A DNA stretch of 35,546 nt from Saccoglossus kowalevskii (lineage: Eukaryota; Hemichordata; Enteropneusta; Harrimaniidae), in contig NW_003144786.1 of assembly GCF_000003605.2 (NCBI RefSeq), positions 411,959 through 447,504 of the forward strand, read 5' to 3'. Shown one piece after another: positions 7,801 through 35,546 of this stretch. How positions within the stretch are numbered: position 1 is the first letter of the stretch; every line of letters begins with the position of its first letter. The notes under the pieces were generated by a model that saw nothing but the letters and a program-made list of their open reading frames with translations, was not told the DNA's origin and ran no database searches. The position numbers were made by a program, and so were the translations under genes.

Positions 7801-10800
7801 TCCCTGGCCAACGTCAATTGCGTACCAGTCTACAACAATACCTCCGTTTTACCTCTGAACTTTTATGCTCACGTATTTTGGTGGTGTGGTCGCCATGTTG
7901 GATCATTTATGACAAAATTGGCATGTTTTGAGACAATCTCCTTCCCATAGGTCTTTGCGCTTTACGTATCGCGCATCTAACTGTGCAGAGTTTGGTTTTG
8001 AGGTAGTCCAAAACGAGTTTTACGACAAGTCGGCACTTTGCAACAATATGAGTCGGCAAGTTCCGGACAGAAAACCGATCTGTGGAGACTCGTCAGAGAT
8101 TTTTTTTTTTTGGGGGGGGGGGGGGGGAAACAAGCGAAAACTAATGCGCATGCGGATGTCATCCATAAAATTAAGTTGGTATGGCCTAAAGATTGTAATT
8201 GACAATAGGTAGTAACTGATATATGGTTATATATGTTATCTGTTCTATATAACTAATTTACCATATTCCTGTGGAATGTGTGTGTTCATTAGTCCAAGTT
8301 CCCATGCCTTTTTAATAACATCAACAGGAAACTGAAAATGAATAAATAATTGCATTACACAAGGTAAATAAACAACTGTGACTGGACTATCCACAATTTC
8401 CAATGTTTTCATCTTTTTTTCCATTTAAAAAAATATGGCAGACAGATTTGAAAATACCATAGGTATTATTCTTCTTTTATCTATCTGCTTAAATCTATTT
8501 ACCGGTATGTCTTTTTTATCTATTCCCCATGCCAAGGCACATAGTATATGGAACTATGACATATAAAATATAAATAATATTAAATAAAATTTTAAATCTG
8601 CTTTTAAAATACTTTGCTGCATAAAAATAACTTAATTTTAAAATATGATAAGTTTGTGTATAGTGTTTTTAAAATCAGATTTGATTTTGGGTTTACCACC
8701 TTGACCATTTTCTGCACAAATAAAAATAAATTTTAATAAATTAGCTATGAGTCATTCCAATATGTGGGTTAACCCTGATATACATTTTTGAAACATGCTA
8801 ATGAAAAAAAAAAAGAACTTCATATACTTAGATTTTATAAGATCAAAAACTGTGAAATAGCTTATGTTATGTTTTGTATTACCCCTTGCCGTAACTTCAC
8901 TAAAGAATTAATTGACGGGGACAAATTACCTCGCCTGTCCTATCATACTCGGCAGCTTTGGGTATCATTTCTTCTCTCGCAAATTTGCGAGCTAATTGCT
9001 GATATTCCTTCTGTTCATCTGTCAACTCTGAAATAAATTTCATAAATCCTAATTTAGAATGAGTAAATAGATCTTGTTCCTAAACATGCCTTTCTACGGC
9101 TAGTAATCGTATATGCAAAGAAACTTCTGTCTTTTCAATGGTGAATACATGAATGTATACACTTTTTGTTTTGTAAACAATTTTCATTGCAGTACTGCGT
9201 AGACTGACACAAATACTTTAGACAGCTGTATGATATAATGCCAATGTTTTTCTGAAATGTGGCTGTGATTCGAATAGAGGTTGTGTCAAGTCTATTCTGG
9301 GATGCTCACATAAACACATGTGTGTAGATTATATTTACTGTAAAATACTTTATTTTATTAAGCTGAAATTAATTTTCACTGAAAAGACTTTTTGGGTGTT
9401 TTCTTTGGAATTTATTTTCACTGATTTGTGACAGAGTTGAATGTAAAATATAGGAAAAAAGGTATATTCGCTGGATTTTATTTTCACTAATCATTCCTTC
9501 AGTGAAAATAGCGAAAATTAATTCCAAGCAAAAATAAAGTATTTTACAGTAACTTGTATTTTACAATAATTGTTACAAGCTTGGGCTAAAAAAATGAAAT
9601 ATTCTGATCATAAAGCGTTCAAAGGAGAGCTATGAAATATTAAACCAATGATATTTAGTACAAGGATCACCTGATGAATTGTATCGCCCGCCTAAAGCTA
9701 TACGAGAGATTTAACTGATTGTGTATGTCTGGCTAAATGCTGCAATAGGCCATTTTTAAGTTCACTGCAACATCCAAAGCGAAAAGATCAGCTTTTCAAC
9801 ATTGAGATATGAAAAAGGAAATTCAAAATCAAACAAAGTCTTCCACTCAATAAATGGGATCTTGCATTAAAGTGGCATTCATCATTCATGTTGTTAGAAC
9901 TCACTATATAGAGTCTATTGAGAGGTTATTGAGCTTGTGAAAATGTGCGGATAGCGAGAAATCAGCCCGAAACAGACAGTGACTGGAGAGAATTTTATTT
10001 TTCGGTGGGCCACCCGTAAACAAAGACCCGAACGTCAGCTACTCGGCTTTGTTATTGAAATCAGTTGACCTAGGGAGTCTCGAGCTAAATTGTTTTTATC
10101 GTGTGTATGTTTTTTTGAACGTGATTTGAGTATACATGATTTGAATATTAATTCAAAGATAACAATATTTAGACCAGAAAAATAAATTTTGTCATTCAAA
10201 TTTTAATGGGATATATATATTAATCATGAAATAAATATCCATATCTGGAAAAATCTATGCTAGTACTAAATGATACAAATCATGTTGAAATATTATACCA
10301 ATGTGCTCCACAATAATTTTTCTGCAACAGATTCCTATACATTAGACTGTATTTTGAAGCTACAAGATTCAATTTGTTAATAATACATATTTGTACATCT
10401 TGTAGGTCTTTTTAAGTTTTTATAAGTACATGTGATAAATGGAATTGAAAAACATATTTTTATGTATTTGTTTACATATTTGACGTATTCTGTATATGAT
10501 TACTGATACTGCTCGACTCCTCATGACATCATAATGTATTCATGTAACTTACCAAATGATATACCAGCACTTGACCGTGAAACAGCTTCAGTTCCTGGAA
10601 TTGTAGTTAAGGCTCGAACATTATTATTCCTTGATATCCACTACAAATACACAACAATGGAAGACAGTTACTACAACATATGCCATATAAAATGAAACAA
10701 GATTTGACTGGAATTTATATTCGAATTTTGTTGAAAAACAATTTATTTTACATGTGTTGTATACGTTAACCCATATCAAGCATTACGTAGCATTGAGACT

Positions 10801-12774: not shown

Positions 12775-13069
12775 GTTGGAAATGGGAATGTGGTCGTAGA
12801 GGGCGATATACACAAATCGTCTTTTGTTTCGACATGAGATCAATTGGCTAAATGTGTACTAATGATGTGTGGTACCGTTGAAAAGGTCTTTGCGTGTATT
12901 TTTCCTAAATATGTGCTAGTCAAGTCAAGTCAGTAGCTTACAATGTAATGACAATTTAAAACTGTTGTCAGATTATGTTTTTTGCTTGTTATTTGCCTCC
13001 ACGAATTTATATTCACACTTTGATACAAGAATGTCTATGCTCAAAAAATGTACACGACCATAGTACCGT
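12775..13069. promoter_or_regulatory. Probable ACADM promoter/5' UTR region
   Basis: This is the sequence directly upstream of the ACADM start codon (minus strand). I see no convincing TATA box or recognisable operator-like site, and cannot place the transcription start. It is assigned by position only. Confidence 0.35.
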
Positions 13070-13139
13070 GATAGAGGGACTGTGACACGACGTACTTATT
13101 CCGACTCTGCTCATTTGTTTATATCACAGTCCCTCTATC
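13070..13139. repeat. Perfect 16-bp inverted repeat (stem-loop) upstream of ACADM
   Basis: GATAGAGGGACTGTGA at 13070-13085 and TCACAGTCCCTCTATC at 13124-13139 are exact inverted complements separated by 38 nt. A 16-bp perfect stem is unlikely by chance in a window this size. It may be the core of a tiny MITE or a structured element; no further symmetry beyond the arms is clear. Confidence 0.8.
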
Positions 13140-13329
13140 TGTGTTTATATTTTACTACCAGTCCACCATCTCAACATTTTATGGTGTATAAATCAGCCAG
13201 ATGCTTACAAAGAGTTAATGTAACTTTGACACTGAGTTATTATTCAACTATATCACTATTAATTTCATTGTCTTCTATTAAAATCAAAGAAAGCTTAGAA
13301 AGAACTCCCATGTACTGAAAGTATTGGAG

Positions 13330-14442
13330 ACACATTAAAAATAATTCGAAATTACTTTCGAATTTCTTGCTGAAAACTAATTATGCAAATTAGAAAATTA
13401 ATATGAACAGATTTGAGTGTAAAACTAATGAGGTCTGTGCAATGTAACAGAACATCTATGTACCAAGTTTTATTGAAAGGTGATCAGAACCAAAAATTTG
13501 TGAATTATTATGCTAATTAGGGAATTAATAAGAAAAGATTTTAACCCCAAACTAATCAGGTTTGTACATTGTCCTAGAGCATCTTTGTACTATGTTTCAT
13601 TGAAATGGAATAATTAGTACTTTAGATATCAGTGTGATAGCTTACAATTGGGTAATTATGCAAATTAGGTAATTACTATGTACAGATTTTAACCCACAAT
13701 TAATCAGGTCTGTCTATTGTCCTACAGCATCCGTGTACAAAGTTTCAATGAAATGTGAAGATTAGTACTTAAGATATTAGTGTGAAAGTTAAAAATAGAT
13801 TAATTATGCAAATTACGTGATTAATATGCATAAATATTCACCGAAAACTAATTGGATCCCTGCATAGTTCTAGAGTCATTGAAATGTGATTAGTACTTGA
13901 GATATCAGTGGAAAAGCTGACAATTAATTGATTATGCAAATTAGGTAATTATTATGCACAATTATTTATCCTAAAACTAATTAGGTCTCTGCATAGTCCT
14001 TGAGTGTCTATGTACCAAATTTCAATGAATTATTAATATGTACTAATATTACCCTAAAAACTATCAGTCTGTGCAGTGTCCTATGACATCTATGTACAAA
14101 GTTTCACAGATTTTTACCAAAAACTAATCAAATCTGCACATAAGTTCAGAGCATCTATGTACCAAGTTTCATCAAAATCCAATGAGTGTTTTTTTAGATA
14201 TCAGTGGAGCAGTCATGGAACAGCTAAAAATTAGCTAATTATAATGCAAATTAGGTAATTAATATGTACATATTTTTACCAAAAACTGATCAAATCTGAG
14301 CATTGGTTCGGAGCATCTATGCACCAAGTTTTATAAAAAGCAATTTATGGTTCTTGAGATAGCAGTGGAACAGACAGACACACAGACACACACACAGACA
14401 AACTAAATGCAAAGATTCCCATTGTGTGCTTTGCACATGGGA
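13330..14442 (-). repeat. Tandem-repeat family A: about seven diverged units of 130-155 bp, ACAG-type microsatellite, terminal hairpin
   Basis: Units recur with landmark ATGCAAATTAG at 13383, 13510 (variant), 13658, 13806, 13934 and 14244, with at least one further degraded unit between the last two. Each also has a TCTATGTACCAAGTTTCAT-like phrase. The array ends in an ACAGACAGACACACAG-type microsatellite (about 14369-14402) and a hairpin (14418-14441, CCCATTGTGTGC-TTT-GCACATGGG with a 3-nt bulge). Read on the minus strand the order is hairpin, microsatellite, cores. A reversed, shorter relative is at 33624-33800. It lies between ACADM and the TRIM-NHL gene, with no coding potential. Confidence 0.85.
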
Positions 14443-15736
14443 GTCAATAAGTAAAATCTGCAATTTGTAATCCAAAGAGTTACTGCAATGAAGTTGAGAA
14501 TAAGTAGCTGCATAATTTGTGTGTGTGTCATTGCCACAAATATTTTAATTTATGCAAGCAGCCATTCCCTGTATGTAAGGTCACCCCCAACTATGCCCGT
14601 CCTGTCATTTTTATGATAATAAGTCAAATAAAGTGAGACAAATTTGTTTCATGCTGTATATATTTTAATAATCAATGTTTGATATAATTGTAATCATGTG
14701 ATGGTTATGTAACTTTGGGAGAGTTCTCAAATAATCTCCATTACAAACCAGGTGTAAAACAGTGTACAACTTAAAACTAGAACAGCAATTAATGAACATC
14801 TTCCCTGGGATGTTCAAGTGATATTCTTCCTCCTCTGTAAATCTCACCCAACACATACGATTCCGGCTAAAAATACGAAAGGAATTGCCTTGGGTTGTTC
14901 CTTTGAGACAGAAAACAAAAAGACAATCCGATACAACCGAAATTCTATCCTCGATGAACTCAACTCTGAAGTATGGTTATAATAATTTTTGCCAAACTTG
15001 TCTGCAATGCAAAGAAGTAGATCTGTGGGGAAAATAACTAGGCATTAAATTTTGTCACATTGAAAAGAAAATGTTAAAATAAAAATGTTATTGTTGTTCA
15101 AAAACTGCATTATATCACACGGATTATCAACATGCAAGAAGTTATGGAATAATTACACCACCCTTTTTGACCAAACTTTTGGAACAACAATTAAGCAAAC
15201 AAAAATCCTAACAAAATTTACTGGGCGGTGTACATAAAATACATTTAACGGTAAAATGTTTACGTTCTCTACACGAGTCTACATCGGGTGATGATATACA
15301 TAATGAATGTTTTTAAATTAGTGCAAACATTTCTTGAATAATAATTTGCGATATTGTACATAAGATGCCATTTCTTGAAAAGTATTACAATATTCACTAA
15401 GATGAAGTGTTTAAAAATACAAACCAACAGAACTACATTATATACACGCTATATGACACTGTAACCATGACAGTAAATTCAGCTTTGGATAAATTAAAAC
15501 TTAACGAAATACTGTGCTTCTACACTTAACAATATTTTACATAGTTGTTATTCAATGGTCTCTCTGTAACTTTAATGTTGTAGTTTTGTTCTTACGCATA
15601 TATGCAAATCATGCTATTCTCAATATTAATGTTGTTGTTTATTGTTGTTTACCCTAATTTTAAATTTACTGAACCAAAAACTTGCACTATAAATATGTAT
15701 TGTGACCATTCATAAAGAAGTACAAGGAATTTACTT
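14443..15736. other. Intergenic region and 3' UTR of the TRIM-NHL gene
   Basis: No gene or repeat is recognised between family A and the TRIM-NHL stop codon. The part next to 15736 is expected to be 3' UTR. Confidence 0.5.
15638..15643 (-). terminator. Candidate polyadenylation signal AATAAA for the TRIM-NHL gene
   Basis: TTTATT on the plus strand reads AATAAA on the minus strand, 94 nt past the stop codon at 15737-15739. The distance is plausible for a short 3' UTR; there is no transcript support. Confidence 0.45.
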
Positions 15737-18019
15737 TTATTGTGCGAAAACCTTAATACAGTTATTTCCGTGGTCTGCGACCACAACCTTACCAAATGGC
15801 TTATCATCAGTGACACAGACGCCTGTAAGATTATTCAATCCATCTTGGTCACTATCAATACGAGATAGAAATACACCGTGTGAATCATATTTCATAACTC
15901 TGTGATTAAAGCAATCACAAACATACATATTACCATCATTATCACAAGCAACATCGTATGGACAATTGAATTGGTTATTACCATTACCCTGACTGCCAAA
16001 ACTGAATAAGAACACACCATCTGAATCACACACCTGGATGCGATGGTTGTATTCAGCCACAATGACATTGCCCTTGTTATTAATGGTCATTCCATATGGG
16101 TTGCTAAACTCACATTGCCCATTACCAAAAGAACCAAATGACTTGACATAGTCTCCATCTTGTGTATAAATTCTGATACAGTGCGAACTGTTATCACAAA
16201 CATACACTCTACCATTTGTAGGGCTGATAGCAATTCCGTCAGGGCATCCCAATTCCTGATTCCCAAAACATCTAATTATCTTGCTGTTCTCATCACATAC
16301 AACAACCTGTTTGTTTCTATTATCTGTTATGAAGTAATAACCTTCCTTTGATACTGCTACATGGCGTGGGTCAAACCCTGATGTAAACGTTGTGAACTGA
16401 ATAACACGTTGATGTATCCCATATAAGGAAAACAACTGAACTCGCTTATTGCCTTTATCACATACAGCAGTCACCCCATTCCCAAATACCCTAACTCCCT
16501 GGATATTTCTGAACTGACCCACACCTGAACCTTTTATACCATATTTACATAACAATCCCTTATTTGGAATTATGGTAATTACAGTTGGTGACCCCTCAAC
16601 ATGTTTGTTAAGAGCTAAAACGGATAATTCATGCTTTCCTTCTACTTTACCCTGATATTTCAGAGATAGTGTCTCGTCAAGGTTTTCTAAAACCGATACG
16701 TTTTCCTCAGATGCCCTCAGCTTGGCTCTAATTTCATTTATAGCTAGTGGTCTTGAACAGTCATCACTTTTTGTCAAAGAAGCTGATAATTCTTCACCAA
16801 TTCTTCCATACTTTGGGACATCTCTGAGCTGAAAGTTATACCTGTGATAAAGTATAACTCCAAGGTTTTTGGTTTCGTGGAAATCGGATCTCTGGAATTC
16901 AATGTAGTCGTCTGTGATTGGTTGCTGTTGGGTCTTCACTTGTATTAGCATTTGTATCTGTGACATCATTCCCTTCTTTGCTGACATCATCTGTGCAGCA
17001 TTCCCATAATGCATTATATTCCTCCCAAAGTCACGTACATGTTTCATGTCATTCTCTGCAATTTCGAGTTCCTTAATTTGTGCTTGCAAGTTTTGTTTCC
17101 GGGATTCATATTCACACTTCATCTCCGCCATCAGTTTACTCCCATTTTCACGGATCTTGGCTGTGATTTCTACGATTGTCTTTTCTATGTGTTCATTCAG
17201 TTTCTTCTCTTCTTCTTGAAATTGGTTCTCCAGAGCTTCTGATGTAGTTTTCACTTCCTGTTTACTGGCCCCTGCTTGTAGTTCCTTCTCTTGCAGTTTG
17301 TCTAACATCTCCATGATGTACCCTTTATATTCCGATGCCGCATCATTAAGGTATCGGTGGTTATGCTCAGTCAGTTTATGATCCAGAGCAATACATTCCA
17401 AACATATTGGGATATTGCATGTATCACAGTAAAATTTTACCTGGTTGTCATGGTGACTGCTACAATAAACTGGAGGCTGTACTTTAGCTGGATCGGTAGA
17501 GCGTGTATTGTTGTATGTTTCAAGCGACATCAGACGATGGGTCTTTAAACATTGGATCTCTTTATGCCCCTGTGTGCAGTTGTCACAAAGTCCAACTGCA
17601 CAATCCAAACATCTAGTTTGTGATATTCCTTGTTTGCAACTACCGCATTTGTCGCCTTCTGCTAGTTTGCCGTCTCGCTTCTTCTCAATCAATCCAGCGA
17701 GTTCACTGAGAAAGAAATTCTTGGAAATACTTGCCAGTCCTTCTGGTAGGTCATGACTTCTTCTACATACGGGACATAGTACAGTCTTTCCACCAGCTTT
17801 CTCGACTAACGTACCGATACACTGTTCACAGTAGCTATGTAAACAAGGTAGAATTCTTGCATCTCTGTATCGCTCTGAGCATATCGCACAGATCAGAATA
17901 TTCTCATCCATTTCGTCAAGGAGTTTTGACTCGGCTGTCGCCATAATGCAGTTACAGCGGTTGTGGTCGTTTATGCTGAACTTTACAGTCTTATTGAGTA
18001 ACTTTAAATACGAGGCCAT
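15737..18019 (-). CDS. TRIM-NHL protein, TRIM2/TRIM3/TRIM71-like probable E3 ubiquitin ligase, single exon
   Basis: 760 aa. A C3HC4 RING finger is at residues 44-85 (CAIC...CLHSYC...CPVC). B-box 1 spans about 125-161 (CGSC...CLDC...CDNC...H) and B-box 2 about 186-222 (CSSHHDNQVKFYC...CLEC...H). A coiled coil spans about 228-330, a poorly conserved filamin/immunoglobulin-like segment about 385-485 (ends EGSPTVITI), and six NHL repeats about 487-758, each with a D-x-x-N-x-x-I/V-x-V-type pattern. RING TRIMs are E3 ligases, and NHL propellers bind partner proteins or RNA. Met26 (17944), directly ahead of the RING-proximal MATAESKLLDEMDEN, may be the true start; residues 1-25 lack recognisable similarity. 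There are no introns, unlike its neighbours. I cannot choose between TRIM2/3 and TRIM71 or a lineage-specific paralogue, so no symbol is given. Confidence 0.93.
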   Translation of the reverse strand: MASYLKLLNKTVKFSINDHNRCNCIMATAESKLLDEMDENILICAICSERYRDARILPCLHSYCEQCIGTLVEKAGGKTVLCPVCRRSHDLPEGLASISKNFFLSELAGLIEKKRDGKLAEGDKCGSCKQGISQTRCLDCAVGLCDNCTQGHKEIQCLKTHRLMSLETYNNTRSTDPAKVQPPVYCSSHHDNQVKFYCDTCNIPICLECIALDHKLTEHNHRYLNDAASEYKGYIMEMLDKLQEKELQAGASKQEVKTTSEALENQFQEEEKKLNEHIEKTIVEITAKIRENGSKLMAEMKCEYESRKQNLQAQIKELEIAENDMKHVRDFGRNIMHYGNAAQMMSAKKGMMSQIQMLIQVKTQQQPITDDYIEFQRSDFHETKNLGVILYHRYNFQLRDVPKYGRIGEELSASLTKSDDCSRPLAINEIRAKLRASEENVSVLENLDETLSLKYQGKVEGKHELSVLALNKHVEGSPTVITIIPNKGLLCKYGIKGSGVGQFRNIQGVRVFGNGVTAVCDKGNKRVQLFSLYGIHQRVIQFTTFTSGFDPRHVAVSKEGYYFITDNRNKQVVVCDENSKIIRCFGNQELGCPDGIAISPTNGRVYVCDNSSHCIRIYTQDGDYVKSFGSFGNGQCEFSNPYGMTINNKGNVIVAEYNHRIQVCDSDGVFLFSFGSQGNGNNQFNCPYDVACDNDGNMYVCDCFNHRVMKYDSHGVFLSRIDSDQDGLNNLTGVCVTDDKPFGKVVVADHGNNCIKVFAQ

Positions 18020-18672
18020 TTAAGATAATCCCAATTGTCATTACCACTCGCTACCGCCTTTTATCTTCACCCACCAAATACTATTTGACCATTGAACCTC
18101 ATCTCGTATCGCCTGTGACATACGAGGCATTATATGACTGTATTAATTTGTTTTTAACTGACAGTGAAATGTACTTGGTGCCTGCAAAGTGTTAACCATA
18201 AAAGCATGTGTGATAAAACTAAGTGAGCTAAAGGATCCTGTTTGTCGTTATGACAATAGAGTACGCGGAAATTCGGAGAATAAGTCACGTGTGTATGTAT
18301 ATTGTATACAAATAAGATGGTTGCACTTCTGGGTATTTATGACTCTTCGTTGAGAAAGGGGGGTTAAGGTATATCGCGAGAAATAAACATAATAAATAGG
18401 GGTCACGGTGAAATGTATCTCAGTTGTTTGTGTTTCAAAGGTTTTACATAATTATTGATTTTGACACATGTCATGAACTTTTTGTTTTCTTTATACGAAT
18501 TATTTTTTTCTAAAAACCCATATTGCAAATCTCCAGCAAATCTGATCATTTGTGTTTATGGTAGCCATATTTATACATGTATTATAATGAAAGTGACAAC
18601 TATAAGACTGATATGGACACTACAGCTTAATGTAATTAAAAACAGATTCTGAGGTAACAATTCACATTCGAC

Positions 18673-18821
18673 TGACTTCATAGTACTGGCGGGTACGGCG
18701 GGTACATAATATTACGCATTTTCTTACAGACAACTACTAGTCTATTATTCGCCTGATCACGAGATATTATGTACCGCCACCACTACAATGCTCGTCGACT
18801 GTGTTTAGTGTATATGAAGTC
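18673..18821. mobile_element. 149-bp inverted-repeat element (MITE-like)
   Basis: The ends are GACTTCATA (18673-18681) and TATGAAGTC (18813-18821). Inside, GGCGGGTACATAATAT (18697-18712) pairs with ATATTATGTACCGCC (18764-18778) apart from one extra base. Two nested inverted repeats suggest a small non-autonomous DNA element or a structured locus. No target-site duplication is clear. Confidence 0.5.
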
Positions 18822-20105
18822 CCGCAATGAAGCATTCTGATTGGTCGAGAAGCATTGAGCTGATTTTCACTTGAGATTCTGCAGATTCTGGCAAAGGAAA
18901 CGTGCAAATTACAGTGTTACGAATAAGTTCGATATTGGTAGATGGGTAGATGGTTCTAAACTCTACAGATACGTATCGAATATAACGTTTACTTCTACAA
19001 GATGGCATAATGTGTGGTTACTGACCACTTCTTGGTGCCGTGTCATAGCTATAAAAACATCTCTATGGCTCCCTCTCTCACGACGTGTGTTTATATAGGA
19101 AATTGCGTGTTCATTTCACCCATATCTGTTATAACTATATGCATCATGTTTTAACTACGTCATATTAAAAGCTTTCGTATAATTGGCATTTTTAAATTAT
19201 TAAAGTTATCATCATCATCATCATCAATAATACGTAACCTATCCCATATATAAAACTCTCCATTTTTTTTCTCCATATACTCTCTTTTTTCATTACTGGT
19301 GACATATACTGGATAATTGGCAGCACACCGACATTGAATCACCGTCCCCAACATGAGAGACGGTGATTAAATTTTGTCGTCATGCGATGGACAATCTAAA
19401 AAGGGCACAATTTTAGTTTGTTCTGTTTCTGACCTACTGAAAGCAAAATATCATCCGTTGTTTACTCCTAGCATTATGAGTAATTCGTGACGCGCTTCTC
19501 AAAATTGATTGACTAAAGTGGTACTCATTCTGGTCCAGTATCAAATCTGTTCAGGACCATTGTAGCGACGAGACATACCGGCTGCACTTCACTCGTGGAT
19601 GACGATGCACAGTTTGGTTTGAATGCAGAAGCAGGGTCGTGGACGTACTGAACTATACAATGTGTTTTACATTGTTTATATTTTAGACAGTTTTGGCGTT
19701 ATAGTGATAAAATGTTAGAGATCTTCCACAAGTGGGACGTACTTAGAAACTAAAATTATCAGAATAATTGCAAATAGGTCTTTTTTCGAAAGCAAGACTG
19801 CACTTAAATAGCGAAAAGTAAATTTGGTTTTAAAAAGATGAGAAAATCTCCGTATAAATAACAAGATAGGATGGCGTCAATGGAACCACAGTTTGTTGTT
19901 TGTTTGAACCATTGTAAAACGAGCTTGATTGAAAACGACTACAATTCAGAAACGTTCGATAAAAACAGTAGTAACTTTAATAATTAATAAAATACAGTAA
20001 TATGGTTATTATAATTTAGGATTAACACAACATTTTGAATGGAATGCGTATATCACATACAGTGTTAAACATGCATGAAGGGCAATTTATATAAACATAA
20101 ATACA

Positions 20106-20111
20106 TTTATT
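20106..20111 (-). terminator. Candidate polyadenylation signal AATAAA for the TESK-like gene
   Basis: AATAAA reads on the minus strand 68 nt past the TAA at 20179-20181. It is assigned by position and motif only. Confidence 0.45.
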
Positions 20112-20178
20112 ATAACAAATTATTTTCTGATAGTTCGTGACGTCACTGTCCCAGAGGGATGCGTACGCGGGAGCATAG

Positions 20179-25447
<5,269 letters not shown>

Positions 25448-27936
25448 CGTGCGTAGTTTGACATCGTTCCAAAACTGGTAAACTTTAGATTCCAGAGAGC
25501 GACGTAGATTATTTTACAGTGCCAAGTAGTACTACAAGCGTCTCTGAAATATGACAAGCACTGTTTTTGTGCGTGTTCTATTCACTACTCTGCATCATTG
25601 ATGGCGGTCTATTGTTCTTTGGTGTTCTATTGCCATGACGTTGTAACCTTATTTGCATATCGTGTAATTCAGGTAGCGTACCTTGCCTATAGGTAATAAT
25701 CACAGAGGTGCAGGACAATAGGCTTTGAATGAAACCGTTAATTACGTACAATTTGCTCGTTATACAGTTTGTTGTCAAATAGAAATCATCGAAACGTCTA
25801 CCATGTCCCTTTACTTCACTCATTTCACACTTGCCTGAACACTATAATTATAACCACAATTCCCTTTTTGCCTCATTTTTTTTTATTTATTTCTATGTTT
25901 TCAATTTTATTTTTATTTTTAGACAAGGTACCCATCAACACATAACGATACAAATATATACAGACCAAATTAGCAAATAAAGAAATTCGACAATATAACA
26001 ACAGCCTAAACAACTTCAGCAATTCAGGAATAACAGAGCAAATTGTGTAAAAAAGCAAACAAACATATAAATAAAATATAAATACAAAATTTTCCTGGGA
26101 TTCATTTCATTTTAAATTTATTAGGAATGTTTTAATATGCGAAATATATTATTCTGGATATACAGAAAAATGAAATGTAAACAAGCATTCACACGATTCA
26201 CTGAATATGTTGCTATCATCAAACATGTCTATCCGTTGCCATGGATATTATTATAACGAATATGTGAGTATTTATAGATTTATTGAGTTATATAATCATT
26301 CATGTTATATAATCACTCATACAAAGTTTACAAAATGAATTGTTTTCATATGTAAATTTTGCTATGTGTTTTGAAATCAACTTCGTAACGGTTTGATCCA
26401 CGGTGCCGAACTGTGCCATTTTGTTAACAAATCTTGATAATATATGTTGTTGCTGACTAGTCGTGGTGAAATTAATACCGAGCATTCTAAAAATAAACCA
26501 ATTGCTTGAGCTTCTCAGATATTTTGACAATGTATACGTCACTGGCAATGGTATATATAACGAATACCTTACTGGTTTGACATTCAATTTTGCTTTTTTG
26601 GGAGCTCAATACTAAAATTGTGCGAAAAACAACAAACAATGTCAACTGTGCCACTACTGTTGTTAAATAATTAATCTAAATAAGAAAATTGATTGATGTG
26701 TGTTAAAGTTGTGGTGATTGGTTTTATTTTATTCTTGCATGGAAATATTATCATTGATTCTCGGGTCGGGTTCAACTCTATTCGTGCAATACCGCCCTCA
26801 TTAGGCAGTTCGTGCATACAATGAATGCTGGTTTTTCGAATGGGGTTATTTTTTGGATTTGTGCAATGCATTTGACCTCGCTGATAATCGTGCTCTTTTG
26901 ACTATGCTCCAATGTTATGATGCTAATACTTAATCACTAAGAAGAATTCACAATCACAGACTCAGATAAGGTTCTGATCAAAACAGCCTTCAAATGTAAC
27001 TTCTGTTAGAGAACTTTTTCACCTCTTTCTGCAGTTGGCATCTGGAGCGATATCCCCATCGGCATTAGAAATTGGGTCATAATCGCGAATTCTATTATAA
27101 ACTCGTGTTTGTCATTAATAACAAATAATCTCCCATTTTGAACATATTAACCATCGTGACTTAGCTGTAACTGTTATTCCGAATAACGGAATCTTGAGGG
27201 CAATATCTCCTGGATGCGCTGTCATTGCTTGGTAATACGATAACCCGCGATCACACATTGAAGAACCTATTACTTGCTACGGCAAATTGTCTGTGTCATA
27301 ACAATTATTACATATCGTATATTTAATATTTGTATTTTCATGTTTGTTTTTCATACTATATAACTTTCTTGTTAAATTAATAGAATCCCACATGAACCAA
27401 TGACGTATGTAAATAACGGTTCTTGGTCCGCTTATAGCACGTCAGACTTCGATTATTCGTAAGGTGACGGTGAAGGTTGCAAATCAATGGTTGTAGTCGA
27501 CAGAGGGCGCAACAACATTGTGTCTTACCAGAGGTACATTTCAATACGGACCTAAAAATACATGTATGTTTAAGGTCTATGAGTACATATACCTGCGGTA
27601 TACATCACTTGGTTGTATCGGTATAGACAGAGTATGTGTCATAAAAGTATATAGTATATAAATTAAATGTGTATAGCAGCCCTGTGTACATACATGTAGT
27701 TGATTTAGACCTGTGCACAGAGCTATATGCGTAGATAACATTGTAAAACTTGTGATCTTGCACAGCCATAGTAATTTATTGTTTCATATAAATTAGTGGG
27801 AATTAGTCAGGCAATACCTTTGACGAACTATTAAACTGTGGGTACTGAAAGAGCGCCACCTGTGCGTTTCGCGGTCGTACCTATTTTTTTTTTTTTTTAA
27901 ACCTAGGGGGTCAACAATACACGAAGCAAAGTAAAG
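25448..27936. promoter_or_regulatory. Divergent intergenic region between the TESK-like and sortilin-like genes
   Basis: About 2.5 kb separates the two start codons, which point away from each other, so both promoters should lie here. I found no recognisable core promoter element. The region is AT-rich, with T-rich stretches near 25865-25920 and 27882-27898 and a short palindrome GTTATTC-C-GAATAAC at 27172-27186. No coding sequence is recognised. Confidence 0.5.
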
Positions 27937-30900
27937 ATGGCGGCCTGGCAGAGGTTTTGTGTACTTATAGTGCTGATTTTGTTCGCTGCTACCACTGTTA
28001 TTACGGCGAAAATTACCGACCTTCTTTCATCACACACGTCGATACTATCTAGTCCTTCGATGAGCCAGCAAAGAAGATTGTTGCAGCCTGTTAAATCGAA
28101 AAAACGTGATATCCGGAACTTGTTTCGCAGAGAGGCACCACAGTGCGGGGATCCACCCATTGAAATTACGAACCTCCAAAACGGCAAAAATCATGTAAGT
28201 ATCCCTGAAAATGTGATGTTTTTTTTTTATAATTTTGTTACTTCGATTTAATAATAATGGACGTGTATAATATTATGTTAACGTCCACTTTGTAGATTTG
28301 CCAAAAAAGTATGTAACCAGAAATGATTCGTTATTATTATTTTGGTGTCGTCATACTGATGTGTTCCATGCCTACTGGTTATTATGTATGTATGTTTGCG
28401 TATCACACCAGCTGGTGTTACCTCACAAATCACAAAACGTGCTGCAATTGTTTTCGATATTGTGCGTTATTTTTTATGAAAAATAGTATTATAAGGTAAT
28501 TCCAGAAATTGCCTCACCTCAGGAACAGGTGATTTTAAGTTTTCACATTTGTCCCTGAAGTCGGAAGGTATGAATGTTGTCTAAAAAATTCAGTTTAGAT
28601 ATGGAAAATTCACTAAAATAATGTCTAAATTTGTGTAAACAAACAATGACATGACAAGGAGTATGTGTTCAGCAGATTTTGACAGAAACTTGTATTCTCT
28701 GAATTTCATCTCCTGTTTAGTTCATAGTGTAGCATCATTTGTTTACATTTACAGTCTCCCTGAAATCTACTATGACAACATTTTTAAAAGGGACATGTAC
28801 ATGTTCATATAAAACACGCAGTGAACAATACTGTTATTTTACCTTTCAGTGCAAGTGGCCGATTCTCTGCAGTAAGTTACTGTGCATAAAAACATGAGCA
28901 AAACATACAACAAGTGCGATGGCCATGACTGATATGTCGTCTGATATTTTAAAAAGCCTGAAAAAAATAATCTCACCAACCTATGTTAAGTTATCACACA
29001 TTTTGGTATGGCCTTATTAACTTCAGTATTCATAATACCACTAAACTGTTTTAAGTAAATGTATCAATAAAGAGTGTATGGTTATAATGTCACAAGCCTG
29101 AAGCATGTAAAATAACCACAGCATTTATTGGCAATTCATGCTCCAAAGTAAACTGTAAAGTAAATCTCAAAGTAAAATCTCATCAGATTTTCTTACTTAT
29201 TCATGCCTCAGTTATTTATATGAGTATCAGTTTAATCAATGAGTTAAAAGATGCTTAGTTGGGTATGCAGTGTATTACCAGAAATGCATGGGAAATGTAC
29301 ACATCTTACATTTTGATGGATTTGTGCATATTTTAATTATGTTACATTGTTACAAAAAACTGCTCACAAAAACAATAATCCAGAATGAATGTGTCACCAA
29401 AAGCTTTGCAAAGCATAAAACCATCTGATATTTTTTGGACCTACAAAATTGGCCATCAAGCAGTCCCTTAGACAAACATTGGTTTATTGGTATGACATAC
29501 ATGTATGCACTACCATTTTAGTTTGTATTAAATATTCAGATGATGTATGTGTTGTTATACTAGCAAGCTAGTAACTTTTGGAGCATGTCTTAATCACAGA
29601 TCAATTTTAAATTATTCTTCCCTTGTTGCTACCTTGATTGTGTTCCCAGGGTCAAAATTTTTCCCGCTTCTTGAATTCATTGATTCACAAAATTTCTAAT
29701 TTCTCATTCAAGTAGTTTACCATACATGTATATCCACCAATTTTCAGTAGGTATGTAAATGAATTTCCAATGTTGCTATGTTAATTGTATAAATCTAAAT
29801 TTCACATCATATTGTTTTTTTTACAGTTTGAGTTTACCAATGAATCAAATTACAACATTGCGTTGACCTGGGCTGGTGTTGATAATGAGGTTAGTAGTAA
29901 TAAATATAGCTGCAAGCAGCATTAGTGAAGTTTCAATTTCTTTGGTTGCTTAGTTACCAGATTCACCAATATTTCAGCAGAATATGCAGTTTCAGGCAGA
30001 AATTTAAGAATCTAGCTCTGTTTTCTACCATATACTACATGTTGATTTTTAATAGTAGGTAAGAAGTTTGTCGTATGATATATAACATCTCGATATATGT
30101 TGGTATAACGTTGTACACGAGTCTGATATTTCTGAGGGACAACTTTCAAGTATGGCTATTCAACTGAAGCAATCAGGTTCCTGAAGTCTAGTTATAAAAT
30201 TAACACATGCCCAGTAATGTAGTAATCAGAGAACTCAAAGCTTGTCTGTTTGTTGTCTATCTTCAAAATATCTTGTTTTGACCATAGACTAACATATGTT
30301 ATACAAAACTCATTTACATTAGGGCATCGTCTTCTATCACAGAAAATATGGTAGTTTTTGTACCATTAATTTTATGCATGCAACGATATGTATATAGCCA
30401 GTCTTGCTTTTGTTTAATTAATTAAAAACACTATACCCGCGTAATCAAATAACCATTCGTCTCGGATAGTATTCTTGTTTCAAGTAAATATATCGCGATC
30501 AGCTGATCGCATTACCATACTTTCTGTTCCACTTACATATACACGCCATATATGTGTGTTATGTCTGTTTTTAAAATCATGGGCACTAAAAAAAAATGAG
30601 CTGGTGATGTTGCAAACTATTGACGCCTTTCGCTGACAAAATGGGTTTTCCCTCTAATGTAATGTGCATTGGAGCACCTACTTATTATTGGTGTGCTCAA
30701 TTTGATTTTCTTCTTTTGAAGTAAAATAATTATTTACAGTATGTTTTTTTTTTAGAATGTCCTGCACAATTGATTTATAAATATAAAGGGTGTCATATGT
30801 TATTAAAGATAACAATAATACATGTAACAAAGTGGTGTTGATTAAAACATCTGTTGCACCCTATATGATCCTGGCTGGATGTGTACCATCTATTACTATT

Positions 30901-32619
30901 ATTATGTGCATCAAATGACTCATTGCTTTTAGCATATTTCAATGTTATTAAAGATAAAATTTAAAATAAAATGTATCATTTATTTTCTTATGTTTTATCA
31001 TATCATTATACATTTTGTTTAGCATATCCTCGGGGGCGGAGCTACGTCACAGACGTTCCACGTTGCTAAGACGCGCACCACTGTACCATGCATTTCTATG
31101 GGCTCTGTGCGCGCTGCTGTGGAACGCCGGTCGAGCCGGTGAAAATTCGAGAAAACAATACAAACTCAACTTTGAAGTAATCCCGAACAATCAAATTTAT
31201 ATATGTTACACACGTAGGGCTAATCTTGTTGCACTGTTCAGAGGAGTCTCAACAATCACCCCAAAGTACCGTTTTCTGCGAGTTTTGGGCCTTTGTTTTC
31301 ACCGCCGCGGGTTGCCAGGCGGTGAAAATGCCCGGATGTCCGCACCCGAGGATAGCGCATACTGTGAATAATATTGATGTACTTAATTAAAGGGCGGTGG
31401 TCGTCGCGCCGCGTCCTGTTCAATATGAGACTAATAGCGACGTATACAACGCGTGTAAAATACATTGTTTATTTACATGAAATTCGAACACGTGCTGTGC
31501 GACGACCACCACGCTTTAAGGAAGCATTATTCTATGTTTACAAGCCATGTTAGACTGTCCATTGTATCAAGAAGTATGCTAGATACAGTGAACACAACAT
31601 CTATACCATTTGAAAAGACAAACGTTTTAAAAAACTGTAACTTGTACCTCAGACTACTATCTGAGCTTGTACTGAATGTAAGAGACTGTTTATATTTGCT
31701 ATGGGTGGTGACTATTATGCAAATTATCTGTCAATTATGTCTTTGGCTGATTAATTAAACATAGCTTTCAAAACAATGACATGTGCTTTTGCTTTTAATT
31801 AACAAAATGGATTTTTACATCCTATAAAATCATCAAATTCACTTTTTTCCTACTGAGTGTTTGCTCCTTGTAGTCCAGCATTAAAAAATACATTAGGTTT
31901 CAAAGCAAAAAAAACATATACAGCATCCTTAAAAAGATTTTCAACAATTTGATCAACAATTTGAATGCTATTTTGTGAATGTTATATGAATCAGGTGCAA
32001 ATGCCTGGGTACAACGAACAAACAAGTTCAAATATGTGTAAAAGGGTAGGTGGATCCATTTTGAATGTGCCAAAATTGTAACACATGTTTTTTTAATTTT
32101 TTATAGTTATAGTTTTTATTGTCTTAATCAAAATGTGCACAAACAAATGTATTTTGTGAGAAATGAAAAAAGTTGACAGACTTTCAATTGATTAACTGTG
32201 CTGTCATGCTCTTGTGTATACATTATTAAACAAATTTCAAAGTATTTTGTTTTTTTTATTTCTTCTAGGCAATAATAATGCTAACAACTTTTGAACTTGG
32301 TATGTTTGTTGGTGCATCGCATCTTTGGAGGAGGTAAGTGTTCATAGAAGTTGTTTACCCTCTTCTCCCATACATTCACATTTCATATTCCTCCAAGACA
32401 AATCTTTCACTGTAGACCTTAATTGAAGTATTAGTGTTGCAGGGATTACAAGATTTATGTGGTTATATTACTGTTGATTTAATATGATTGATTCTTGATG
32501 TTTTTACTCCTTACAGTTCAAATCATGGAAAAACTTTTGAACGCATTTCAGATAAAATAAATCATGCATATGTCAGAAGTAACAATGGTGTTTTTAAAAG
32601 TCCTGTCAAACCAAATATG
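27937..32619 (+). CDS. Sortilin-like VPS10-domain receptor, first four coding exons (partial)
   Basis: Exons: 27937-28194, 29827-29889, 32269-32333, 32517-32619, giving 163 aa in frame, with GT-AG introns; the gene leaves the window at the right. Residues 1-24 (MAAWQRFCVLIVLILFAATT...A) are a signal peptide. Basic runs KSKKR and FRRE near residues 53-66 are candidate furin sites, as in the propeptide of sortilins. The VPS10 start follows: NIALTWAG, then AIIMLTTFELG, then LWRSSNHGKTFERISDKINHA, close to human sortilin's LTTF and SEDYGKNF...I..I wording. Sortilin-family receptors carry cargo between Golgi, endosome and surface. The first exon ends in a YNG-like segment (LQNGKNH) with no clear counterpart. 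SORT1-like is favoured over SORL1/SORCS, but the fragment is short. Confidence 0.88.
28195..29826. other. Sortilin-like intron 1, no gene recognised
   Basis: A 1632-nt intron, AT-rich, with no repeat or coding sequence that I recognise. Acceptor is a T-run then TTACAG at 29821-29826. Confidence 0.5.
29907..29950 (+). repeat. Possible interspersed repeat start (AGCTGCAAGCAGC)
   Basis: AGCTGCAAGCAGC, a short palindromic phrase that I recall as opening interspersed repeats in several invertebrates, occurs right after exon 2. I could not see the other end. Confidence 0.25.
31025..31354. mobile_element. GC-rich 330-bp MITE-like element with TA target site
   Basis: The ends are inverted complements with one mismatch in 13-14: TATCCTCGGGGGCGG (31025-31039) and CCGCACCCGAGGATA (31340-31354). 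A TA at each end would fit Tc1/mariner-type target-site duplication. The block is much richer in G+C than the intron around it. A plus-strand frame (31015-31371) happens to be open across it, but its translation has no known domain and continues into the flanks, so I do not call a gene. Confidence 0.6.
31387..31519. mobile_element. 133-bp MITE-like element with TTAA flanks
   Basis: AGGGCGGTGGTCGTCGCG (31391-31408) is the inverted complement of 31498-31515 at 15 of 18 positions. TTAA lies directly outside both ends (31387-31390 and 31516-31519), as in piggyBac-type insertion. It lies 36 nt right of the preceding element. Confidence 0.65.
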
Positions 32620-32911
32620 GTGAGTAAGATGTACAATATTTACCATCAGTTCAGATTAAATACTTTTACATAGGTGATGTGCACAGTCAATGATGTATAT
32701 ATTAACATGGTAATTCTAAGTTTCATGAATTACTAGAATCAATTTCTTATTTTCAATCCCATGTGTACAGTAGTTATGCATGTATTCTGATCCGGTAAAT
32801 AACAGAATCTTTTTTCTCTCTTGTGTACCGCCAGCCAATCACAGTTATTGTTATAACAGTCATGATGCGAAGGCTGTTGACTCACTTACAAACCATTCGT
32901 TACATTAACTT

Positions 32912-33443
32912 TTTAGCTTCGCTGTTGACTTTGTCGAGCGGAGCTTATCATATGAGTGATTGTCTGTTGTCGTCGTCGTCCATGTCAATGTTTTACTTTT
33001 TTGACTTCTTCTTGAAAACTACAAGCCTGAATGCTTTGATACTTGGTGTATATGTACCTTGGGTAGACCTCTCTTAGGTTTATTCACTTCATGTTGATTT
33101 CTTCAATTCTCTAATTTTGGTGAATATTTTTGTCAATTTTTGTAAAAAGTGATATTTTCGACTTCTTGTTAAAAACCACAAGTGCAATTGCTTTGATATT
33201 ACATATATAGGTACTACATGTGGACCTCTCTCAGATTTGTTCATTTTGTGATGATATCTTCAATTCTCTAATTTTGGTGAATATTTTTGTCATTTTTGGT
33301 AAAAAGTGATATTTTCGACTTCTTGTTAAAAACTGTAAGTCCGATTGCTTTGATATTATGCATATTGTTCATATGTCTTCAGTTCTTTAATTGAAATGTG
33401 CATTGCTAACAGCGGAGCTATCTCAGCCGATGGGCTTCTTGTT
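32912..33443 (+). repeat. Tandem-repeat family B, first copy, with head hairpin and TCG microsatellite
   Basis: The head is AGCTTCGCT (32915-32923), a 13-nt loop, then AGCGGAGCT (32937-32945), a 9-bp stem with one mismatch. Next is a GTCGTCGTCGTC run (about 32968-32980). Three cores follow; the phrase GACTTCTT...AAAACTACAAG recurs at 33003, 33160 and 33317 (157-bp spacing), with GCTTTGATACTTGGTGTATATGTACC in the first. The end, AGCGGAGCTATCTCAGCCG...GGCTTCTTGTT, recurs in the second copy. Confidence 0.85.
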
Positions 33444-33623
33444 AGAGTTTTCTTGTGTTTATGACAAATACACAGATCTTGTATCATTAAGTCAATAGAT
33501 GTGTAATTTTCTATTTTCAAAGCAATATGTGTCTTAGTGCCTCTAGATAAAAAAAAAACCTTCTTCTTAAATCGTTCTTGGACAATTGTTGACGAAAAAA
33601 TTATAGATGCTGCTTCGTCAAAA

Positions 33624-33800
33624 AGAATCCCATGTGCAAAGCACACTATGGAGTCTTTGTAGTGACCCTGTCTATATGGCTGTTCCACCAGTATCTCAAG
33701 AACCGTCATTTGGATTTTGATGAAACCAGGTACACTGTATATAGATACTCTGTGCATATTAATAACCTAATTTGCATGATAATAAACCAGTAATTAGTTA
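33624..33800 (+). repeat. Tandem-repeat family A, short reversed copy
   Basis: The plus strand here is the reverse complement of the family A end at 13.3-14.4 kb: the hairpin phrase CCCATGTGCAAAGCACA, then a degraded microsatellite, then TATCTCAAGAACCGTCATTTG, ATGAAACCAGGTACA and TAACCTAATTTGCATGATAAT. About one core unit remains. It lies between the two family B copies. Confidence 0.75.
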
Positions 33801-33865
33801 TTCCAGTAACCAACCGTCTGTATTGCAACCATTTTGGTCACCTTGGCGGATTAAATTTTTGTTAT

Positions 33866-34296
33866 TTTGATATCTTCAATTCTCTTATTTTGAGAAATAT
33901 TTTTGGTAAAAGTGATATTTTCAACTTCTTGTTAAAAACTACAAGTTCAATTGCTTTGATACTATACATATAGGAACTACAGTTTGACCTCTCTCAGATT
34001 TGTTCATTTCATAATGAGATATCTTCAATTCTCTAATTTTGATGAATATTTTTTGTAAAAAGTAATATTTTCGACTTCTTGTTAAAAACCACAAATCCGA
34101 TTGCTTTGACACCATACATACAGGTAACTACAGGTAGACCTTTCTCAGATTTGTTCATTTCCTGATGATATCTTCAATTCCCTAATTTTGATAAATATTT
34201 TCTCAGATTTGTTCTTTTTTTAATGATATCTTCTGTTCTTTAAATGAAATGTGCATTGCTAACAGCGGAGCTATCTCAGCCGAGAGACTGCTTGTT
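33866..34296 (+). repeat. Tandem-repeat family B, second copy
   Basis: Phrases of the first copy recur: CTTCAATTCTCTTATTTTG, CTTCTTGTTAAAAACTACAAG (33923, again 34073), GACCTCTCTCAGATTTGTTCATTTC and the end AACAGCGGAGCTATCTCAGCCGA...CTTGTT. No head hairpin is seen. Confidence 0.8.
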
Positions 34297-34981
34297 TTTT
34301 CTGTCACAAAAATCTAACCTGTTTTGTTGAGTAATTTAGCAGAAACGATAATGGGTTCACAGGTAAAATATACAATGGTGATAAGGCTTGAAACAAGAGA
34401 AACAAAATATATCAATTGGATAAAAATTTGTCCTCTCCTGTTCTTCTACCTTCCATGTGCTAACGAATTGCAAAGATAATCATATAATTGTATGATATGA
34501 AATCAAACATATATTTCTAAAAATACAAATGTAGACAAGTGAGTATGTTGGAGAACTTGGTTAAATTGGTTAGAATTATGTTATAAATTCTTGATACATT
34601 TTGGGAAACAATTTCTACTTCAAGGTCTCTATGAATAAATTTTTCTTCACACTCACTTTGTTTACATGTTGCATTACCTGCATCATTTTGTAAATTTAGA
34701 AGTCTATTTTAATTTTAATTTAAAGCTGGATAAAATTGAAAACCTGACTGGAAAAGTTTTTCTGATGAAGAGCAAGATATATTAGCTGATGTTGATCTTT
34801 TTACATTTGATGTTTTTGTCATATTTCAGTAATCTTTATTCTTATGTTTTCTGTGAATAATTCAGTTATTATAAACATTTTTAGTAAATTTTTAAACAGG
34901 TGTCATCACTAAACTGCAGCACCAAAGGTGTGGTTGTTATAACACTCTGTACAGACCACTTACTATAAACACAGCACTAAT
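34297..34981. other. Intron or intergenic spacer, no feature recognised
   Basis: Probably sortilin-like intron 4. I looked for the next VPS10 exon, expected to begin with a strand resembling K-V-V-L-T, and could not find a convincing one. Confidence 0.4.
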
Positions 34982-35546
34982 TAGTCCCCGTTCGGACGTA
35001 GTCTGAAAACGAGGACTTATGTTTTGCCCTGTGTGCGTCCGTGTGTGCGTCCGTGTGTGCGTCCGTGATCACCTGTATCTCGAACATGCATGGACCGATT
35101 AAGTTCAAACTTCACTCATACATCACACATTATATGGGACATATGCACATGCATTTTTTTCATGATCCAATTAACGATAGCCGAATAGCGGCCATTTTAA
35201 GGCCGAAAATGTATCAAAATCGCACATTTTCACCATTCCGGACCCGGATCTCAGTTATGCATGGACAGATTTTGTTCAAATTTGGTACATACATTAAACA
35301 TAATAGGACCTTGATGCACGTCATTTTTTTTTTTTTTTTTGGATCGGGTTTGAAATGGCCGACTGGTGGCCATTTTGTTTTAAAGAATTCAGTTCTGGAT
35401 CCGTATCTGAGACATGCTTGGATTGATCGAGTTCAAACTTCACAAACTCAAGGTACATCATGTCACAAATATGTATGTGCATTTGTTTCATGATCTCATT
35501 AACGATAGCCAAATGGCGGCCACTTTAAGGCCGAAAATGCATTGAA
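34982..35546 (+). repeat. Tandem-repeat family C, hairpin, 12-bp microsatellite and about three cores, cut by the window edge
   Basis: AGTCCCCGTT (34983-34992) and AACGAGGACT (35008-35017) form a 10-bp stem with one mismatch. GTGTGCGTCCGT repeats exactly three times (35031-35066). Cores follow with ATGCATGGACCGATT-type landmarks at 35085, about 35257 and 35413, a TTCAAATTTGGTACATACAT phrase and a GGCGGCCA...TTAAGGCCGAAAATG phrase. The element runs past the edge. Confidence 0.85.

What the first reader, a model, noticed from the sequence alone, without database searches (positions are those of the whole stretch)
12912..35546. Three repeat families share one architecture: hairpin, microsatellite, then core tandem repeats with a common motif
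Families A (13330-14442, minus reading), B (32912-33443) and C (34982-35546) share little sequence overall, yet read in one orientation each has a short imperfect hairpin, a simple microsatellite, then several cores of about 130-170 bp. The cores contain AAACTTGGTACATAGATG (A), TTTGATACTTGGTGTATATGTACC (B) and TTCAAATTTGGTACATACAT (C), usually preceded by a TATCTC/ACTTCTTG-type phrase and a CGATT-like block. This is reminiscent of pearl and Helentron-associated non-autonomous elements (core repeats plus microsatellite), which I know only in outline. Three families converging on the same plan could be a superfamily mobilised by one helicase, and the shared motif could be the recognised site. 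The motif assignment is by eye and I did not compute alignment scores.
Basis: partly seen in the sequence, partly recalled or inferred. Interest (0 to 1): 0.75.

Follow-up and report, generated by a model that had tools for sequence, protein, structure and literature searches.

The report
Three non-autonomous Helentron-type transposon families
The three repeat families are short 'passenger' transposons of the Helentron (rolling-circle) type, built on the plan already described in oysters and flies; two of them also share a short internal sequence block whose meaning is open.

Summary
Own-genome copies give sharp ends: A 13283-14445 (-), B 32914-33442 (+), C from 34982, cut by an assembly gap at the window end. 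Each has a 5' hairpin (subTIR plus complementary repeat), a microsatellite, cores of about 130-170 bp and a 3' subTIR. Insertions lie next to T; empty sites for B and C show no duplication beyond at most one T. A 3' palindrome is present in B and C by sequence (energetically weak), not in A. B and C both end CTTGT.

The 'common motif' holds only in part. A and C share TATCTC-N25-AAAYTTGGTACATA, modestly beyond chance; B does not. The block also occurs in relatives of C and a few other nearby repeats. Inside family A it is hardly better conserved than the rest of the core, so a recognition-site role is unsupported.

The genome holds a Helentron with Rep, PIF1 helicase and endonuclease domains, but its ends were not found and nothing links it by sequence to A, B or C. 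One shared helicase is plausible, not shown. New members of a known kind.

The parts
13283..14445 (-). Family A element, 1163 bp, both ends present
   Evidence: 5' GACTCCCATGTGC and 3' ...CTTTGAT ends shared with other own-genome copies
14414..14445 (-). A 5' subTIR with complementary repeat: two-step hairpin with a 3-nt loop
   Evidence: the family form folds at -12.0 kcal/mol, z -4.6
14370..14400 (-). A microsatellite (GTGTGTGTCTGT)
   Evidence: Tandem Repeats Finder
13380..14367 (-). A core repeats (steps of 127-151 bp in the consensus); several carry TATCTC-N25-AAAYTTGGTACATA
13283..13315 (-). A 3' subTIR (GTACATGGGAGT) and terminus; no palindrome found
   Evidence: 1 mismatch of 12 to the 5' subTIR; fold z +0.7 for the family form
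32914..33442 (+). Family B element, 529 bp, both ends present
   Evidence: both ends found in 30 of the 30 loci fetched, window copy included
32914..32945 (+). B 5' subTIR and complementary repeat (two-step hairpin, 3-nt loop)
   Evidence: the family form folds at -13.1 kcal/mol, z -5.5
32961..32982 (+). B microsatellite (GTC/GTCC units, variable length between copies)
   Evidence: sequence and copies
32998..33400 (+). B core repeats (157-bp period)
33409..33442 (+). B 3' subTIR (ACAGCGGAGCTA), imperfect palindrome, terminal CTTGT
   Evidence: palindrome fold weak, z -1.0
34982..35546 (+). Family C element, left end and cores; cut by an assembly gap at the window end. Other copies end GAACGGGGAC...TCATTGACAATGA, CTTGT
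34983..35017 (+). C 5' subTIR and complementary repeat (two-step hairpin, 3-nt loop)
   Evidence: the family form folds at -15.6 kcal/mol, z -5.7
35030..35067 (+). C microsatellite (TGTGTGCGTCCG)
33864..34295 (+). Second B copy, 5'-truncated
   Evidence: blastn to the B consensus and a 3' end
33625..33805 (+). Fragment of an A left end and first core
   Evidence: blastn to A

Best explanation
A, B and C are three separate families of non-autonomous Helentron-type rolling-circle transposons (HINEs). No transposase gene was recognised in them; a Helentron Rep/helicase/endonuclease supplied in trans is inferred to recognise the terminal hairpin and subTIRs, peel off one strand, and insert the copy next to T without duplicating the target. 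The tandem cores and microsatellite are passenger DNA. Shown here: the ends, hairpins, subTIRs, insertion context, empty sites for B and C, dispersal, and a Helentron in the same genome. Inferred: mobilisation in trans, the rolling-circle mechanism, and which Helentron does it.
For: Plan: the oyster Cg_HINE description is 5' subTIR, complementary repeat, microsatellite (GTCY, GTCC or GTCK in several), central repeats, 3' subTIR, palindrome, T-rich insertion without duplication (passages). SubTIRs: B 0-2 mismatches of 12 in 30 of 30 elements; C 2-3 in 14 of 14; shuffled 12-mers reach 2 or fewer in 0.35-0.49% and 3 or fewer in 2.2-4%; A 0-1 of 12 in 3 of 3, no shuffle run. Context: base before the element T in 30/30 (B) and 14/14 (C), after it T in 25/30 and 11/14, flanking T content 0.36. 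Empty sites: of 44 joined flanks (30 B, 14 C), 7 have a match across the junction in the loci held; 6 have no indel near it (B in L016, L028 and, at only 77%, L033; C in L049, L058 inside a B core, and L059 matched by L038 at 98%), and 1 (B in L038) differs by one base in a run of T. Hairpins. Helentron on C2261: PF14214 108.5 bits, PIF1 86 and Exo_endo_phos 46.4 bits; its Rep reads CGSPHTH, with the S between G and P that PMC4067079 gives for Helentrons (passage). C-like left ends also carry other cores (L005, L016, L037, L054), the modular habit described in oyster.
Against: No autonomous element sharing the ends was found: the C2261 stretch has no match to A, B or C better than E 0.06, its termini were not identified, and a run of N lies about 1.8 kb past its endonuclease frame, so a 3' end could be hidden. 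The A 3' palindrome is absent (z +0.7) and those of B and C are weak (z -1.0, -1.7). For A only 3 elements with both ends were in hand and no empty site was tested. A one-base T duplication cannot be told from the element's own terminal T, which is T in all 44 elements. The other matches to the C2261 Rep are partial, many with stops.
Confidence: 0.87

Rival explanations
1. They are HINEs, and the shared block TATCTC-N25-AAAYTTGGTACATA is a selected signal (for Rep, helicase or a host factor) kept in the cores of otherwise unrelated families.
For: Exact spacing: 85 matches at a gap of 25 against 0-3 at each other gap from 17 to 35 in 285,143 bases (by my reading 80 of the 85 are in copies of A or C, which were fetched on purpose). 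In 216,641 bases outside A, B and C, 21 weight-matrix hits of 12 bits or more (best 35.9) against 0-3 per matrix in 20 column permutations (best 20.5). Cross-family identity of 13 representatives is 0.556 in the block, 0.271 upstream, 0.338 downstream (most representatives were picked by the matrix or pattern, and some are C relatives, so this is biased upward).
Against: B lacks it. In A the block is hardly more conserved than the rest of the core (0.699 and 0.678), and the best 49-column stretch lies elsewhere (0.795). Several further hits lie in elements with C-like left ends, so they are C relatives and not independent. Common descent of the cores explains the sharing.
Confidence: 0.12
2. 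They are canonical Helitrons (5' TC, 3' CTRR, insertion between A and T).
For: No target duplication beyond at most one T and a possible 3' hairpin in B and C.
Against: Ends are TAG or GAC and CTTGT or CTTTGAT; the base before the element is T in 30/30 B and 14/14 C. The Helitron features are recalled, not from a call.
Confidence: 0.04
3. They are TIR-type DNA transposons (MITEs) with internal satellites, moved by a cut-and-paste transposase.
For: Inverted repeats near both ends; pearl elements have been listed among MITEs (PMC5139131 passages).
Against: No duplication of two or more bases at the empty sites; the 3' inverted repeat is subterminal and the extra complementary copy is only at the 5' end.
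Confidence: 0.04
4. One Helentron lineage mobilises all three families. This can hold together with the best explanation.
For: Same plan; B and C end in the same CTTGT after a palindrome; all three 5' hairpins have an outer stem, a small bulge, an inner stem and a 3-nt loop.
Against: Stem sequences are unrelated and A ends CTTTGAT without a palindrome; no autonomous element carrying any of these ends was found.
Confidence: 0.35

Closest known systems
Cg_HINE elements of Crassostrea gigas (PMC7492417, passages seen)
   Same: Order of 5' subTIR, complementary repeat, GTC-type microsatellite, central repeats, 3' subTIR; T-rich insertion without duplication; related ends with unrelated cores; in some clusters two conserved segments in otherwise dissimilar monomers; autonomous partner not found.
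   Different: Sequences not compared (figures not held, supplements not read); A here has no 3' palindrome.
DINE-1 and mite HINEs (PMC4067079, passages seen)
   Same: SubTIRs, an inverted repeat by the 5' subTIR (DINE-1), 3' stem-loop, central repeats, insertion at T-rich or TT sites; no target modification seen in the mite HINEs.
   Different: There, two mite HINE subfamilies share 84-99.9% identity with longer Helentron repeats; no such partner was found here.
Pearl family, DTC84 and MgE of bivalves (named in PMC7492417 passages)
   Same: Short arrays of about 160-bp central repeats (pearl), comparable architecture.
   Different: Sequences not seen; not compared.

Membership tests
HINE (non-autonomous Helentron) | 5' and 3' subterminal inverted repeats | tested here: met
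   B 30/30 with 0-2 mismatches of 12, C 14/14 with 2-3; A 3/3 with 0-1
HINE (non-autonomous Helentron) | Inverted repeat complementary to the 5' subTIR | tested here: met
   all three fold, z -4.6 to -5.7
HINE (non-autonomous Helentron) | Microsatellite and central tandem repeats | tested here: met
HINE (non-autonomous Helentron) | Palindrome near the 3' end | tested here: inconclusive
   present by sequence in B and C but folding only z -1.0 and -1.7; not met in A, z +0.7
HINE (non-autonomous Helentron) | Insertion at TT or T-rich sites, no target duplication | tested here: met
   B and C: (a one-base T duplication cannot be excluded). A: T before 4 of 5 left ends and after 5 of 6 right ends, no empty site tested
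HINE (non-autonomous Helentron) | Sequence identity with an autonomous Helentron of the same genome | tested here: inconclusive
   Helentron present but its ends were not found and no similarity was seen in the stretch held
HINE (non-autonomous Helentron) | No coding capacity | tested here: inconclusive
   of 32 stop-to-stop frames of 90 aa or more, none overlaps A, two (92 and 136 aa) overlap the edges of B and one (163 aa) lies over C; these were not searched against families
Canonical Helitron | 5' TC, 3' CTRR, insertion between A and T (recalled) | tested here: not met
Pearl family | Sequence similarity to pearl consensus | not testable with these tools
   no Repbase or Dfam on hand; no pearl sequence in the passages seen

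The most novel reading that the evidence does not exclude
The block TATCTC-N25-AAAYTTGGTACATA is an old functional signal kept in the core repeats of several unrelated Helentron-associated families, and possibly of other animal repeats, acting in replication or mobilisation.
Probability: 0.1. Interest if true: 0.65.

Novelty: new member of a known kind. Interest (0 to 1): 0.3.

Why it matters
That makes the open question of which Helentron moves satellite-carrying HINEs easier to test. The partly shared core block is a lead on how satellite-like cores relate between families.

Tried and rejected
Gapped alignment of whole consensuses did not single out A-C; A-B came out best there (37 of 1000 shuffles), against the ungapped result. 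The Rep fragment on C3364 with B-like and C-like repeats downstream was rejected as evidence of a partner: the B piece stops before its 3' end and runs into C-like repeats, which I read as nested debris. Searches for a subTIR pair around the C2261 Helentron gave only weak pairs. The region upstream of the Rep on C1479, 826 bases to the contig end, was read by eye only; I saw no such hairpin. A form of the block with 21 specified letters had no exact match in viral contigs or genome contigs, and no paper held the block strings asked for. My memory that similar blocks follow microsatellites in other animals comes from no call and is not used as evidence. No Rfam family reached its gathering score in the window. 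An extra genome search with the stretch from inside B to the second B found B copies again. The host organism was not identified.
Full report
Its longer frames read like animal genes to me (names by eye); the organism was not identified.

Copies and ends. Genome searches scored 40 candidates per family and all 40 matched, out of 2,559 (A), 3,394 (B) and 2,340 (C) first-look candidates, so copy numbers are lower bounds. Comparing copies with their flanks (8 A loci, 30 B, 30 C) gives sharp ends. B: TTTAGCTCCGCTGTCGACTTTGTCGAGCGGAGCTTATC at the 5' end and ACAGCGGAGCTATCTCAGCCGATAGGCTGCTTGT at the 3' end. C: TTAGTCCCCGTTCGGACGCAGTCCGAAAACGGGGACTTATG at the 5' end and GAACGGAACGGGGACGTGTCATTGACAATGACTTGT at the 3' end. 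A: GACTCCCATGTGCRAAGCACAAAATGGGAGTC and GCACATGGGAGTTCTTTCTAAGCTTTCTTTGAT. In the window these put A at 13283-14445, B at 32914-33442 and the start of C at 34982. C is cut by an assembly gap that starts at the window end.

Anatomy. All three 5' ends fold into an outer stem, a bulge of 2-3 nt, an inner stem and a 3-nt loop, with unrelated stem sequences (z -5.5, -5.7, -4.6). A scan of the loci held found 48 such hairpins: 47 carry A, B or C ends, 1 is C-like, and one resampled set had none. The 5' and 3' subTIRs agree in 30 of 30 B elements (0-2 mismatches of 12) and 14 of 14 C elements (2-3); shuffled 12-mers reach 2 or fewer in 0.35% (B) and 0.49% (C), and 3 or fewer in 2.2% and 4%. In A, 3 of 3 elements with both ends have 0-1 mismatches. 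The 3' palindrome is weak in B and C and absent in A.

Insertion. The base before the element is T in 30/30 B and 14/14 C; the base after it is T in 25/30 and 11/14. Of 44 joined flanks, 7 find a match across the junction in the loci held. Six have no indel near the junction: B in L016, L028 and (only 77%) L033; C in L049, L058 (inside a B core) and L059. One, B in L038, differs by one base in a run of T. The element begins and ends with T in all 44, so a one-base T duplication cannot be told from the element itself.

The motif. Ungapped comparison supports A-C only, modestly (5 to 15 of 300 Markov sequences reach the observed value, depending on window length), and neither pair with B; a gapped alignment does not support A-C (391 of 1000) and gives 37 of 1000 for A-B. 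In the loci held the spacing of 25 between TATCTC and AAAYTTGGTACAT is strict (85 matches against 0-3 per other gap), but by my reading 80 of the 85 are in copies of A and C. Outside the three families a weight matrix made from A and C cores finds 21 sites where permuted matrices find 0-3. Several belong to elements with C-like left ends and other cores (L005, L016, L037, L052, L054; picked by eye from 37 low-scoring rows of 67, most of the rest being the hairpin read on the other strand), hence relatives of C. Within A the block is hardly more conserved than the rest. Common descent of core repeats is the simplest reading.

Autonomous partner. PF14214 has 8 matches in the genome and the C2261 Rep has 26 matched stretches, one being itself and the others partial. 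C2261 carries Rep, PIF1 helicase and an endonuclease of the Exo_endo_phos family; PMC4067079 describes Rep/helicase with endonuclease, and a separate RPA frame, for Helentrons (passages). I did not look for an RPA frame. The ends were not found, and the stretch held shows no similarity to A, B or C beyond short words.

Verdict. The architecture claim is right and matches a known kind. The three-family motif claim is half right. The single-helicase claim is open.

Noticed in passing
window 5813-5896 and 5973-6083 (-): Further fragments of family B core repeats.
   Followed up: no
window 9416-9475: Piece of another dispersed repeat; it matches the joined flanks of the B insertion in L028 (83% over 60 bp).
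   Followed up: partly
L037:2962, L054 (-) 3213, L005:2400, L016:569: C-like left ends joined to cores different from C: module exchange as described in oyster HINEs. L005 has a matching change on both sides of the stem.
   Followed up: partly
L049 (-) 793 and 1330: Two further sequences resembling the A/C block, 25.3 and 17.6 bits; only the first exceeds the best hit of every permuted control.
   Followed up: no
L071 (C3364), locus 1749-2901: Helentron-like Rep fragment interrupted by a long minisatellite whose frames read as repeats of HIVDVNYQGVTSHRGCQLPRC.
   Followed up: no
L073/L074 (C238, C3452): Long open frame with a divergent Helitron_like_N match (38.1 bits for L073) and a different Rep signature, GNRPHVH, not the Helentron GSPH.
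   Followed up: no
window 21475-21763: 22-bp minisatellite, 13 copies, next to frames that read like protein-kinase exons (name by eye).
   Followed up: no
window 15737-18019 (-): Single 760-aa frame that reads like a TRIM/NHL-repeat protein (name by eye, not searched).
   Followed up: no
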